From: a virus
IMG/VR virus record: IMGVR_UViG_3300034138_000012
Span: 1-28,258 of that record
DNA length: 28,258 nucleotides
Reading direction: 5' to 3' (one strand)
Shown here: piece by piece, positions 308 through 15,001 of the stretch
How the letters are laid out: the number at the start of each line of letters is the position of its first letter
How positions within the stretch are numbered: the first letter of the stretch is position 1
Translations under genes and position numbers: made by a program
The notes under the pieces: model-generated
Told to the model about the DNA's origin: nothing
Databases searched by the model: none
What the model saw: only the letters and a program-made list of their open reading frames with translations

Positions 308-508
308 TCACTTACTCCACTCGATGACCTGGAACTTCTTCAACGCGTCCGCCACGAACGGCGCACCGTCATGCACGAACACCCGAACCCGGCGCTTGCC
401 GGCGAACCGCGACACAACCGGCTCAACCCCCACGAACGACAGAGCCGGGCCGCCGTTGAACGTCCGGAACCACATCCCCGGTTCCATATCCACCGGCGCC
501 GCGAACAT
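308..508 (-). CDS. Hypothetical protein, 66 aa
   Basis: The ATG at 508 shares one base with the TGA of the upstream gene (TGATG), a standard coupled start in this phage. The product has a glycine- and valine-rich, beta-prone middle (FNGGPALSFVGVEPVVSRF), a basic KRRVRVFVHDG strand, and ends in EWSK. The end codons also form the GGAG ribosome site of the next gene. The low-complexity-free sequence and the coupling favour a real gene, but no family is recognised. Confidence 0.65.
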   Translation of the reverse strand: MFAAPVDMEPGMWFRTFNGGPALSFVGVEPVVSRFAGKRRVRVFVHDGAPFVADALKKFQVIEWSK

Positions 509-687
509 CACGCGGCCACCCGCTCGATACGGTGAGGCCACGTGTCCCCGTAGTAGCGCACGTGATGCACGGCCGTAGACGCCGCCTCCCGGGCACTGCC
601 GCACTCCCCGTCGAAGTTGAAAGCGCCGGGGCAACCGCACTCCCACCCGGTAGCGGCGAGCTTCAGCGTGTAGACCTTCTCGGCCAT
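508..687 (-). CDS. Hypothetical protein, 59 aa
   Basis: The start at 687 is chosen because GGGAGGCAAGGCT precedes the ATG. An upstream in-frame ATG would lie inside the conserved intergenic repeat. The product begins MAEKVYTLKL and carries CGCPGAFNFDGECG, with three cysteines (C20, C22, C31) that could bind a metal, followed by a basic HHVRYY segment. The gene is translationally coupled to the next one by a one-base overlap. No family is recognised. Confidence 0.65.
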   Translation of the reverse strand: MAEKVYTLKLAATGWECGCPGAFNFDGECGSAREAASTAVHHVRYYGDTWPHRIERVAA

Positions 688-707
688 AGCCTTGCCTCCC
701 ATGAGCG

Positions 708-768
708 GCACCGTGCCACTCCGGCGAGCGCACCCGCGAACGGATGCACCACCGGCTAGAAACGGTGC
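708..768 (-). ncRNA. Intercistronic structured repeat, family A copy 1
   Basis: This is one of three related elements. Outer stem P1 pairs 708-714 with 762-768 (GCACCGT with ACGGTGC). P2 pairs 721-724 with 752-755 (CCGG with CCGG). P3 is a 7-bp hairpin, 730-736 with 741-747, with a UUCG loop in minus-strand RNA. One P3 pair is G-U only when read from the minus strand, which suggests that the leftward transcript is the folded form. The element ends just before the GGGAGGCA ribosome site of the next gene. Confidence 0.6.
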
Positions 769-1008
769 CTAGCTGTCCCACACCATCCGGCCGACCACAA
801 GCCGCGCGATGTGGAAGCCCATCGAGAGGTCCGACGGCGCCCGGTACGCCTCCACCACCGCACCGGACAAGTACCACTCGCCCTTACGCGGGCACCGAAC
901 CTCGCCCGTCCACCTCGCCCGCGTGTTGGCCTGCGTGTTGCCCGGCGGCAACGTCTCACCGTCCGCCACGGGGTAGAGCCCGTCGCGCCGCACCGTGTTG
1001 TCACTCAT
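769..1008 (-). CDS. Hypothetical phage protein, 79 aa
   Basis: The start at 1008 follows GGGAGGCAAGGCT. The 79-residue product contains the stretch PRKGEWYLSGAVVEAYRAP, of a kind seen in short conserved proteins of actinobacteriophages and similar phages whose function is unknown. That link is from memory of the family, not a search. The beta-prone C-terminus (FHIARLVVGRMVW) suggests a small globular domain. The stop codon lies immediately before family A repeat copy 1. Confidence 0.75.
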   Translation of the reverse strand: MSDNTVRRDGLYPVADGETLPPGNTQANTRARWTGEVRCPRKGEWYLSGAVVEAYRAPSDLSMGFHIARLVVGRMVWDS

Positions 1009-1030
1009 AGCCTTGCCTCCCTGATGAATG

Positions 1031-1095
1031 GCACCGTGCCACTCCCGCGTGAGCACGAGGGGTTGCCCTCGTGCACCACGGGCTAGAAACGGTGC
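1031..1095 (-). ncRNA. Intercistronic structured repeat, family A copy 2
   Basis: It has the same layout as the copy at 708. P1 is 1031-1037 with 1089-1095 (GCACCGT with ACGGTGC). P2 is 1044-1047 with 1079-1082 (CCCG with CGGG). P3 is a perfect 9-bp hairpin, 1053-1061 with 1066-1074. P2 differs from copy 1 at paired positions on both sides, a compensated change. The joint bases CCACT and GGCTAG are kept. The next ribosome site follows 10-20 nt downstream on the minus strand. Confidence 0.65.
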
Positions 1096-1097
1096 GG

Positions 1098-1355
1098 TCA
1101 ACGCGCGCCGGACAACGGCGGCACGATCCGCTTAAGGGCCGTGTCGATGTGCGCGTCCGTCAAGTACGTGTAGAGCCGGTCCTGCAACTGCCACCCGGTC
1201 GCGCGCATCGCAGCCGAGTACGCGTCCCACCGCAGCCGCTTGTCCGGGTCGCTCACCGTGCCGACAGTCTTGCGGTACGCCGCCCGCACCTCATCGGTGA
1301 CCAGCGGCGACACGGCGGCCTTCAACGCTTCGAAATCCTCAGTCGTGATCTTCAC
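1098..1355 (-). CDS. Hypothetical protein, 85 aa
   Basis: The start is GTG at 1355 behind GGGAGGCATGAC. The nearby ATG is out of frame and closed at once by TGA. The product is largely helical by appearance, with many charged residues (FEALKAAVSPLVTDEVRAAY and SDPDKRLRWDAYSAAMRATG), and ends in a short basic tail. No family is recognised. It is bounded on both sides by family A repeats. Confidence 0.7.
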   Translation of the reverse strand: MKITTEDFEALKAAVSPLVTDEVRAAYRKTVGTVSDPDKRLRWDAYSAAMRATGWQLQDRLYTYLTDAHIDTALKRIVPPLSGAR

Positions 1356-1374
1356 GTCATGCCTCCCATGAGCG

Positions 1375-1434
1375 GCACCGTGCCACTCCCGCGCGTACCC
1401 GGCTCCGACCGGGTACCACGGGCTAGTTACGGTG
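1375..1434 (-). ncRNA. Intercistronic structured repeat, family A copy 3
   Basis: P1 is 1376-1381 with 1429-1434 (CACCGT with ACGGTG). P2 is 1388-1391 with 1419-1422 (CCCG with CGGG). P3 is a perfect 8-bp hairpin, 1395-1402 with 1409-1416 (GTACCCGG with CCGGGTAC). P3 is unrelated in sequence to P3 of the other copies yet fully paired. The TAG stop of the upstream gene lies inside the conserved CTAG joint, so its last codons encode part of this element. Confidence 0.65.
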
Positions 1435-1617
1435 ATCCGGTTCCAGCGGCAACCACTCGCCGCCGGGCAGAACATCATCCCGGTCATCCGGGTCCGACCA
1501 CGCATCCGCCGGGCCGACAGGCCACCCCCCGCCCGATCCCGCCGGCCGATCCCACCGGGCCGCATACCGTTCCTCGCACGCGAAAATCTCCGGGTCAACA
1601 TCCGGGTAGCGGCTCAC
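1423..1617 (-). CDS. Hypothetical acidic protein, 64 aa
   Basis: The GTG at 1617 overlaps the TGA of the upstream gene by four bases (GTGA), so the two are coupled. The product is acidic and proline/glycine-rich (SDPDDRDDVLPGGEW), with one tryptophan-rich region and a single cysteine. It looks poorly folded except perhaps in the N-terminal half. Its 3' end is embedded in family A repeat copy 3. No family is recognised. Confidence 0.65.
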   Translation of the reverse strand: MSRYPDVDPEIFACEERYAARWDRPAGSGGGWPVGPADAWSDPDDRDDVLPGGEWLPLEPDHRN

Positions 1618-3008: not shown

Positions 3009-3069
3009 ACTAAGGGGATGTGACCTACGCCAAAAATTTCTGCGGAACTACGGCCGGCCGCTCACGGCC

Positions 3070-3101
3070 AAAAAATTTCGGGCAGTCACCCTGCCCGAAA
3101 T
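3070..3101 (-). terminator. Intrinsic terminator of the first leftward unit
   Basis: On the minus strand a perfect 11-bp stem (ATTTCGGGCAG with CTGCCCGAAAT, 5-nt loop) is followed by a run of six T. This is a textbook intrinsic terminator, placed directly after the stop codon of the gene ending at 3113 and before the next promoter-like box. It separates the unit 4232-3113 from the unit starting at 2949. Confidence 0.88.
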
Positions 3102-3112
3102 CTCATGGCACG

Positions 3113-3364
3113 CTAGCGGGCAGCCCTACGCGCATACACCCTGTGCTCATTACCGACCCGACGGACAAGCGCATCGAAACCCGCGCCGTACTCACGGCCC
3201 GCATTGATCCGCTCCGCGTGCGACTCCGCCCGCGCCGCCCGGTCATGCCGCGCCACAATCGCCCAGTGACCACGCTTCACCGTGAGCGCCGCGCCGATTT
3301 CCTCACGCGTCGGAACCGACGCGTCATCCATGCCGGGCGGATCTTCGAAACTGAGCGAACCCAT
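3113..3364 (-). CDS. Hypothetical protein, 83 aa
   Basis: The start at 3364 is preceded by GGGAGGCAGTGTT. The first 25 residues look flexible and acidic (FEDPPGMDDASVPTREE). The rest is basic and helical (HWAIVARHDRAARAESHAER and DALVRRVGNEHRVYARRAAR), which could bind nucleic acid, though no known domain is recognised. It is the last gene before the intrinsic terminator at 3070-3101. Confidence 0.7.
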   Translation of the reverse strand: MGSLSFEDPPGMDDASVPTREEIGAALTVKRGHWAIVARHDRAARAESHAERINAGREYGAGFDALVRRVGNEHRVYARRAAR

Positions 3365-3393
3365 AACACTGCCTCCCATAGAACCGACACAGA

Positions 3394-3454
3394 CTGTCTG
3401 TGTGGCCAGTAAGCCGCGCGTCACACTCGCGCGGGAAGCTGGTCACACAGTCAG
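3394..3454 (-). ncRNA. Intercistronic structured repeat, family B copy 1
   Basis: Three nested stems are visible. The outer is CTGTGT with ACACAG (3398-3403 with 3445-3450), extended by CTG with CAG across a mismatch. The middle is CCAG with CTGG (3406-3409 with 3439-3442). The inner is CCGCGCG with CGCGCGG (3414-3420 with 3428-3434), around the loop TCACACT. The TGA stop of the upstream gene forms part of the outer stem. The first strand also lies in a 17-bp palindrome at 3387-3403. Confidence 0.65.
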
Positions 3455-3684
3455 GCGAAGAACGCGCGGACCCATTCGGGCGTAAGTGCCGGACCGAACC
3501 GCTCCGGATCGGCCACGCGTTCCCCACCCGGACTATCCGGAGTGCACATGACAACCGACGGGCCATAGGCCGTGCCCACGAACCAAACGACCTTCGGTGC
3601 CTCACCCGGGTAGGTCACCTCAACGGTGTACGCAAACTGCCCGGCCAACCCACCCGTGCGCATGATCTTCCCCAACTGCGGCAT
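3451..3684 (-). CDS. Hypothetical protein, 77 aa
   Basis: The start at 3684 is preceded by GGGAGGCGTC. The product looks like a small beta domain (QFAYTVEVTYPGEAPKVVWF) followed by a loop and the short helix TPEWVRAFFA. No family is recognised. It lies between the two family B elements, its stop codon embedded in one and its ribosome site following the other. Confidence 0.72.
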   Translation of the reverse strand: MPQLGKIMRTGGLAGQFAYTVEVTYPGEAPKVVWFVGTAYGPSVVMCTPDSPGGERVADPERFGPALTPEWVRAFFA

Positions 3685-3714
3685 GACGCCTCCCGTGACT
3701 AGCAGCCGCTCACA

Positions 3715-3775
3715 CTGACTGTGTGGCCTGTAAAGCGGGTGTCACACTCACCCGCTAAGCAGGACACACAGTCAG
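3715..3775 (-). ncRNA. Intercistronic structured repeat, family B copy 2
   Basis: It has the same plan as the copy at 3394. The outer stem is a perfect 10 bp (3715-3724 with 3766-3775, CTGACTGTGT with ACACAGTCAG). The middle stem is CCTG with CAGG (3727-3730 with 3760-3763). The inner stem is AGCGGGTG with CACCCGCT (3734-3741 with 3749-3756), around the identical loop TCACACT. The middle and inner stems differ from copy 1 but stay paired. The upstream gene's TGA stop is again inside the outer stem. Confidence 0.7.
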
Positions 3776-14927: not shown

Positions 14928-15001
14928 TAGCGCGGGCGGGATTTGAACCCGCGACCTCCGGGTTATGAGCCCGTTGAGCTACCGAACTGCTCCACCGCGC
15001 A
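14928..15001 (-). tRNA. tRNA-Met (CAT), initiator type (fMet)
   Basis: A complete 74-nt cloverleaf without CCA. D arm is GAGC/GCTC, anticodon loop CTCATAA, T arm GCGGG/CCCGC with loop TTCAAAT, discriminator A. It shows the bacterial initiator marks: no Watson-Crick pair at 1-72 (T against T), A11-U24 in the D stem, and three G-C pairs closing the anticodon stem (GGG/CCC). Pair 27-43 is A against G, which departs from the usual. It is transcribed leftward, toward the other tRNA-like element. The host CCA-adding enzyme would be needed. Confidence 0.9.

What the first reader, a model, noticed from the sequence alone, without database searches (positions are those of the whole stretch)
708..1434. 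Family A: three covarying intercistronic elements in the leftward operon
At 708-768, 1031-1095 and 1375-1434 the same three-stem plan recurs between consecutive small genes. P1 (GCACCGT/ACGGTGC) and the joints CCACT and CTAG are conserved. P2 is CCGG/CCGG in one copy and CCCG/CGGG in two, changed on both sides. P3 has a different sequence in each copy but is perfectly paired (7, 9 and 8 bp). Change that keeps pairing points to selection for structure. Some pairs are G-U only in minus-strand RNA, so the leftward transcript is the likely folded form. Each element sits between a stop codon and a GGGAGGCA ribosome site. Possible roles are translation control, RNA processing between genes, or dispersal as small mobile or recombinogenic modules. 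I know of no exact match; mycobacteriophage start-associated sequences are only a loose analogy.
Basis: partly seen in the sequence, partly recalled or inferred. Interest (0 to 1): 0.85.

Follow-up and report, generated by a model that had tools for sequence, protein, structure and literature searches.

The report
RNA hairpins between phage early genes
A group of uncultured phages, probably of actinobacteria, places a new, evolutionarily conserved RNA hairpin exactly between a stop codon and the next gene's ribosome site, most likely so that one long messenger RNA behaves as separate, swappable gene units.

Summary
The three elements are one RNA family. I found eight more copies in five related IMG/VR phage contigs (11 copies, 6 phages). 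All 11 lie in sense orientation. In 8 of 11 the stop codon ends at the first base pair. A Shine-Dalgarno and start codon follow 15-26 nt after the element in every copy.

The structure is one ~65-nt imperfect hairpin: P1, a conserved internal loop (5' NNCUAG / 3' RRGUGGC), P2, P3. On a sequence-only alignment, 13 of 23 pairs change on both sides (covariation score 0.433, shuffles 0.211 +/- 0.025, 0/500). In a tree-aware test, the three best of 2,556 column pairs are structure pairs. There is no match in Rfam, in isolated phages, or in the bacterial genomes reached.

The same early operons carry other intercistronic hairpin families. At orthologous genes the upstream element can be A in one phage, B or C in another, or absent, so the families look interchangeable.

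Best explanation: intercistronic mRNA processing and insulation hairpins, working like T7 early RNase III sites, read by a host double-strand nuclease. The structure is well supported; the mechanism is inferred. They are not ESAS/SAS elements, terminators or DNA operators. Verdict: a new RNA family, a new variant of a known kind.

The parts
707..769 (-). Family A element W1 (P1 769-762 with 714-707); its first base is the last base of the upstream stop codon TAG 771-769
   Evidence: 83.5 bits with covariance model R2 (a training sequence); MFE z -5.5
1030..1095 (-). Family A element W2; upstream stop TGA 1100-1098
   Evidence: 68.6 bits with R2; MFE z -6.1
1374..1434 (-). Family A element W3; upstream stop TAG 1425-1423 lies inside its CTAG
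   Evidence: 67.9 bits with R2
508..687 (-). small gene downstream of W1 (59 aa, no PHROG match)
769..1008 (-). small gene between W2 and W1 (79 aa, no PHROG match)
1098..1355 (-). small gene between W3 and W2 (85 aa, GTG start; weak PHROG 9817, function unknown)
1423..1617 (-). small gene upstream of W3 (64 aa, GTG start overlapping the stop of 1614-2150)
   Evidence: sequence read directly
3376..3453 (-). Family B element, copy 1 (different sequence, same placement and plan), directly after the stop of 3451-3684
3700..3774 (-). Family B element, copy 2; P2 CCUG/CAGG versus CCAG/CUGG and P3 changed on both sides relative to copy 1
   Evidence: z -3.1

Best explanation
Family A is a structured RNA that punctuates the polycistronic early (leftward) mRNA of a clade of phages that probably infect actinobacteria. 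It is a ~65-nt hairpin of P1 (7-8 bp), a conserved non-canonical internal loop (5' NNCUAG, 3' RRGUGGC), then P2/P3 (14-16 bp) and a small apical loop. It starts at the stop codon of one gene and ends just upstream of the space a ribosome needs to start the next. Shown: the family, the structure, its sense-strand nature, its placement, and its exchange with other hairpin families at the same junctions. Inferred: the hairpin is a processing and stability signal. A host double-strand-specific nuclease (RNase III, as at T7 early junctions or the Streptomyces rpsO-pnp hairpin) would cut at or near the internal loop, giving each small gene its own mRNA with a protected 3' hairpin. The same hairpin would also keep terminating ribosomes and upstream sequence from interfering with the next ribosome site.
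For: 11 copies in 6 phages. Covariation on a sequence-only alignment: 13 of 23 pairs change on both sides, 86% of cells paired against 30-59% when slid, 0/500 shuffles. Tree-aware test: 4 pairs with E<0.05 and the three best of 2,556 column pairs all in the structure. A U-G pair is kept in 10 of 11 copies, the sense strand folds better in 10 of 11, and 11 of 11 lie in sense orientation. The stop codon ends at the first pair in 8 of 11, and the SD and start follow at 15-26 nt. No U-tract follows, and no promoter or terminator match overlaps the elements. Families A, B, C and others swap at orthologous junctions, as expected for one generic structure-dependent role. Precedent: S. [quoted passage not shown] T7 intercistronic regions fold into hairpins of similar plan followed by the next gene's ribosome site; that RNase III cuts there is established knowledge, not tested here.
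Against: No cleavage or transcript data exist. The host is unknown, and the phages encode no recognisable RNase III. Conservation of both sides of the internal loop is more than a generic RNase III substrate needs and may mean a specific binding partner. Many gene junctions in the same operons have no element.
Confidence: 0.45

Rival explanations
1. Translation punctuation without cutting. The hairpin acts alone, or with a protein bound to the CUAG/RRGUGGC loop, to block ribosome sliding and reinitiation and to keep the next ribosome site free or regulated.
For: The stop codon is in fixed register with the first base pair, and the start codon lies 15-26 nt downstream, about one initiating ribosome. 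The internal loop is conserved on both sides.
Against: Element classes swap at orthologous genes, which argues against gene-specific regulation. Downstream genes are unrelated to each other. No binding protein is known.
Confidence: 0.25
2. Gene-cassette boundary. The repeats are kept mainly because homologous hairpins let recombination exchange small early genes between phages.
For: The early operons are highly mosaic. The same gene carries A, B, C or no element in different phages, and unrelated genes are separated by related elements.
Against: Recombination needs sequence identity, not compensatory change. The stems differ in sequence while pairing is kept, only on the sense strand. No insertion footprint was seen. 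This may be a consequence rather than the selected function.
Confidence: 0.12
3. Transcription element. The RNA binds RNA polymerase as it emerges (put- or EAR-like) and keeps it processive through the operon.
For: Structured, sense-strand, repeated along a long early operon; no U-tract.
Against: Tight coupling to stop codon and ribosome site is not needed for antitermination. Known put-type elements sit near promoters and occur about twice per genome (background knowledge).
Confidence: 0.08
4. DNA-level sites (operator, ESAS-like inverted repeat) or chance inverted repeats.
For: P1 is near-palindromic in the window copies.
Against: Compensatory changes, kept G-U pairs, sense orientation in 11 of 11, and covariation beyond phylogeny.
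Confidence: 0.03

Closest known systems
Phage T7 early RNase III processing sites (R0.3 to R1.3)
   Same: Repeated hairpins with internal loops between consecutive early genes, just upstream of the next ribosome site; T7 junctions fold to a similar plan.
   Different: No sequence or model match. Different phage group. Cleavage untested. In family A the stop codon is in register with P1 and the internal loop is conserved on both sides.
Streptomyces coelicolor rpsO-pnp intergenic RNase III hairpin
   Same: Intercistronic hairpin with a near-symmetric internal loop in an actinobacterium; RNase III cuts both sides of the loop (PMC10126417).
   Different: A single chromosomal site with no reported family of repeats; sequences not compared here.
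Cluster K mycobacteriophage SAS/ESAS
   Same: Repeated intergenic inverted repeats upstream of starts of small non-structural genes, often between different gene families (PMC3203893).
   Different: The ESAS authors found that arm changes do not support RNA pairing; here they do. The SAS 13-mer is not above chance in the window, and model R2 finds nothing in Cluster K phage Chris.
Selective RNA processing and stabilisation (SRPS) operon stem-loops
   Same: Intercistronic stem-loops after stop codons that set the fate of neighbouring mRNA segments (PMC8219983).
   Different: SRPS loops are defined by stability, not by a conserved sequence and structure family.

Membership tests
T7-type intercistronic RNase III sites | hairpin with internal loop between consecutive early genes on one transcript | tested here: met
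T7-type intercistronic RNase III sites | cleaved by RNase III in vivo or in vitro | not testable with these tools
   no experimental data; phage RNase III gene not found
T7-type intercistronic RNase III sites | sequence or covariance similarity to the T7 sites | tested here: not met
   R2 finds no match in the T7 early region
Cluster K SAS/ESAS | 13-bp SAS GGGATAGGAGCCC at the ribosome site | tested here: not met
   6 matches with up to 3 mismatches in the window against 9.7 expected, none at the elements
Cluster K SAS/ESAS | 17-bp inverted repeats whose arm changes do not preserve RNA pairing | tested here: not met
   strong compensatory change here, contrast PMC3203893
Intrinsic transcription terminator | hairpin followed by a U-tract | tested here: not met
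   P1' is followed by GCTCATGGGAGG or ATTCATCAGGGAGG; no terminator match at the elements
Rfam families (release 15) | match to any of 4227 covariance models | tested here: not met
   only a tRNA at gathering threshold; best sub-threshold match E 9.4
SRPS operon stem-loop | stable stem-loop directly after a stop codon inside an operon | tested here: met
SRPS operon stem-loop | processing changes the stoichiometry of the flanking cistrons | not testable with these tools
   no transcript data
Small mobile repeat (MITE/REP-like) | scattered in both orientations with insertion footprints | tested here: not met
   11 of 11 copies in sense, mostly at fixed register to the stop codon; footprints not systematically tested

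The most novel reading that the evidence does not exclude
These phages use a general junction code: several unrelated structured RNA classes (A, B, C and others) that are interchangeable at gene boundaries, recognised through their internal loops, and that turn a fast-evolving operon into insulated, swappable single-gene units.
Probability: 0.3. Interest if true: 0.78.

Novelty: new variant of a known kind. Interest (0 to 1): 0.6.

Why it matters
Early operons of actinophages are highly mosaic, and how newly swapped genes get expressed correctly is unclear. A conserved RNA part that marks gene junctions, and that can be replaced by other parts of similar plan, would be a direct answer and is testable. 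It is also a new covariation-supported RNA family, absent from Rfam, and a possible ready-made insulator for polycistronic expression in GC-rich hosts.

Tried and rejected
Pattern scans of IMG/VR and GTDB with P1 fixed gave only one true relative (contig 3300048913_000322); the other hits were chance and lacked the fold. BLAST of the window, of single elements and of the relative's early region found no isolate phage with the element. Covariance search of 395 Actinomycetes genomes found nothing, but scored only 12 candidates per genome, so it shows little; the search of five genomes carrying TerL relatives was also shallow. Further IMG/VR patterns for the other loop variants added no new contig; the weak model hits inspected (21-26 bits) lacked the element's fold. 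Orthologues of the gene upstream of the element in G008 and G011 gave no new contigs. Phage-encoded RNase III: none over the cut-off. Family B and C scans found no convincing copy outside this clade. Rejected: terminator, promoter, SAS/ESAS, Rfam family, DNA-only palindrome.

Full report
What was checked. The window is a 28,258-base IMG/VR virus fragment. Rightward genes encode terminase, portal, protease, capsid and tail proteins. A run of small leftward genes of unknown function fills the left end. TerL relatives at 59-90% identity are all uncultured IMG/VR contigs. The nearest isolates are about 49% identical by TerL (mycobacteriophages such as Stank and Murphy) and 41% by capsid (Arthrobacter and Mycobacterium phages). 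The host is therefore probably actinobacterial but unknown.

The three elements. All are present as described. In minus-strand RNA each is a single imperfect hairpin: P1 (GGCACCGU/ACGGUGCC, one or two pairs shorter in W2 and W3), an internal loop (5' UUCUAG or AACUAG, 3' AGUGGC), P2 (CCGGUG/CGCCGG or CCCGUG/CGCGGG) and P3 (8-9 bp) with a 4-6 nt loop. W1 is 5.5 sd more stable than dinucleotide shuffles. W1 and W2 are at z -4.5 and -6.1 in a wider survey.

Homologues. A loop-centred pattern found one relative, contig 3300048913_000322 (here G001), and a second pattern found another copy in it. A covariance model from these five sequences (R1), run over whole records of TerL relatives, found six more: G007 (two), G003 (two), G008 and G011, at E 6e-7 to 6e-15. 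A second model from all eleven (R2) found no further full copy in 41 records, including near-50-kb relatives such as G022. The family is thus known from six phages of one clade. Rfam has no match.

Covariation. On the MAFFT alignment made without structure (A2), 13 of 23 pairs change on both sides and 86.1% of cells pair. Sliding the partner by 1-3 columns gives 30-59%. The covariation score is 0.433 against 0.211 +/- 0.025 in shuffles (0/500). Because shuffles ignore relatedness, I also simulated the inferred substitutions along the tree. Four structure pairs reach E<0.05 (20-56, 21-55, 28-47, 36-45), and the three strongest of 2,556 column pairs are all structure pairs. P1 is mostly conserved in sequence and gives no individually significant pair, but G007a carries a wholly different P1 that still pairs (GGUUCGC/GCGAACU). 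One U-G pair is kept in 10 of 11 copies, which fits RNA of this strand and not the other, and the sense strand folds better in 10 of 11.

Placement. In all 11 copies the element lies in sense between two genes. In 8 of 11 the stop codon ends at the first base pair or within two bases of it. In G001 it lies a few bases further upstream (two copies). In W3 it is the UAG inside the element's CUAG. The next start codon, with its Shine-Dalgarno, is 15-26 nt after the element. The genes after the elements are not related to one another.

A wider system. A survey of same-strand gaps in ten related phages shows that strong intercistronic hairpins are common in the early operons; intragenic controls of the same genomes rarely fold so well. 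Besides A there are at least: family B (two copies in the window); family C (GGGCCGAUUCAGC ... AUGGAUUUACCC; four copies in G003, one each in G008 and G011); and others in G007, G008 and G011. Family C also covaries: 9 of 23 pairs change on both sides in six sequences, 0/500 shuffles. Orthologous genes show exchange of class. W 3113-3364 has B upstream, its G007 orthologue has A, and its G001 orthologue has none. W 3451-3684 has B, its G003 orthologue has C. A third orthologue set has C, another hairpin, or none. G008 and G011 keep A after the same orthologous gene, so some copies are inherited in place.

How it most likely works. The lack of a U-tract and the sense-strand covariation argue against a terminator and a DNA operator. 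Interchangeability at a junction argues for a generic, structure-read role. The closest working parallels are T7 early RNase III sites (their regions fold to a similar plan; cleavage is established knowledge) and the Streptomyces rpsO-pnp hairpin, where RNase III cuts both sides of a [4/4] internal loop (PMC10126417). No RNase III gene was found in these phages, so a host enzyme would be needed. I favour processing plus insulation (about 0.45) over pure translation control (0.25), a recombination cassette (0.12) and antitermination (0.08). Cleavage, stability and any binding protein are untested.

What it is not. Cluster K ESAS elements look alike in layout, but their authors report that arm changes do not support RNA pairing (PMC3203893). 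The SAS 13-mer is no more common than chance in the window, and R2 finds nothing in the Cluster K-type phage Chris (which carries the SAS) or in T7.

Limits. There are eleven sequences from metagenomic contigs. Gene calls outside the window are by a simple script. Searches of bacterial genomes were shallow and metagenome contigs could not be scanned.

Noticed in passing
window 3376-3453 and 3700-3774 (minus strand): Family B: two copies of a second intercistronic hairpin (CUGUGUG ... CACACAG, conserved loop AGUGUGA) directly after stop codons; P2 and P3 differ on both sides between the copies.
   Followed up: partly
L157 3092-3171, 3475-3551, 3789-3865, 4100-4179; L158 5794-5877; L159 10227-10302: Family C: a third covarying intercistronic hairpin family (GGGCCGATTCAGC ... 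ATGGATTTACCC) in relatives G003, G008 and G011.
   Followed up: yes
L159 8843-8921 and 9336-9408; L156 941-1010 and 3909-3968; L158 8478-8559: Further intercistronic hairpins in early operons of relatives that fit none of A, B or C; some may form additional families.
   Followed up: no
L156 2425-2489 (G007): Hairpin that matches only the P2/P3 part of family A (22.6 bits), possibly a decayed or rebuilt copy.
   Followed up: no
window 3062-3108 (minus strand): Strong hairpin followed by a run of U after the gene 3113-3364, by eye a terminator that would split the leftward genes into two transcripts, B copies in one and A copies in the other. The consensus scan did not list it.
   Followed up: no
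window 14928-15001 (minus strand): A tRNA gene between rightward structural genes, on the opposite strand; part of it is 89% identical to Nocardia phage NTR1.
   Followed up: no
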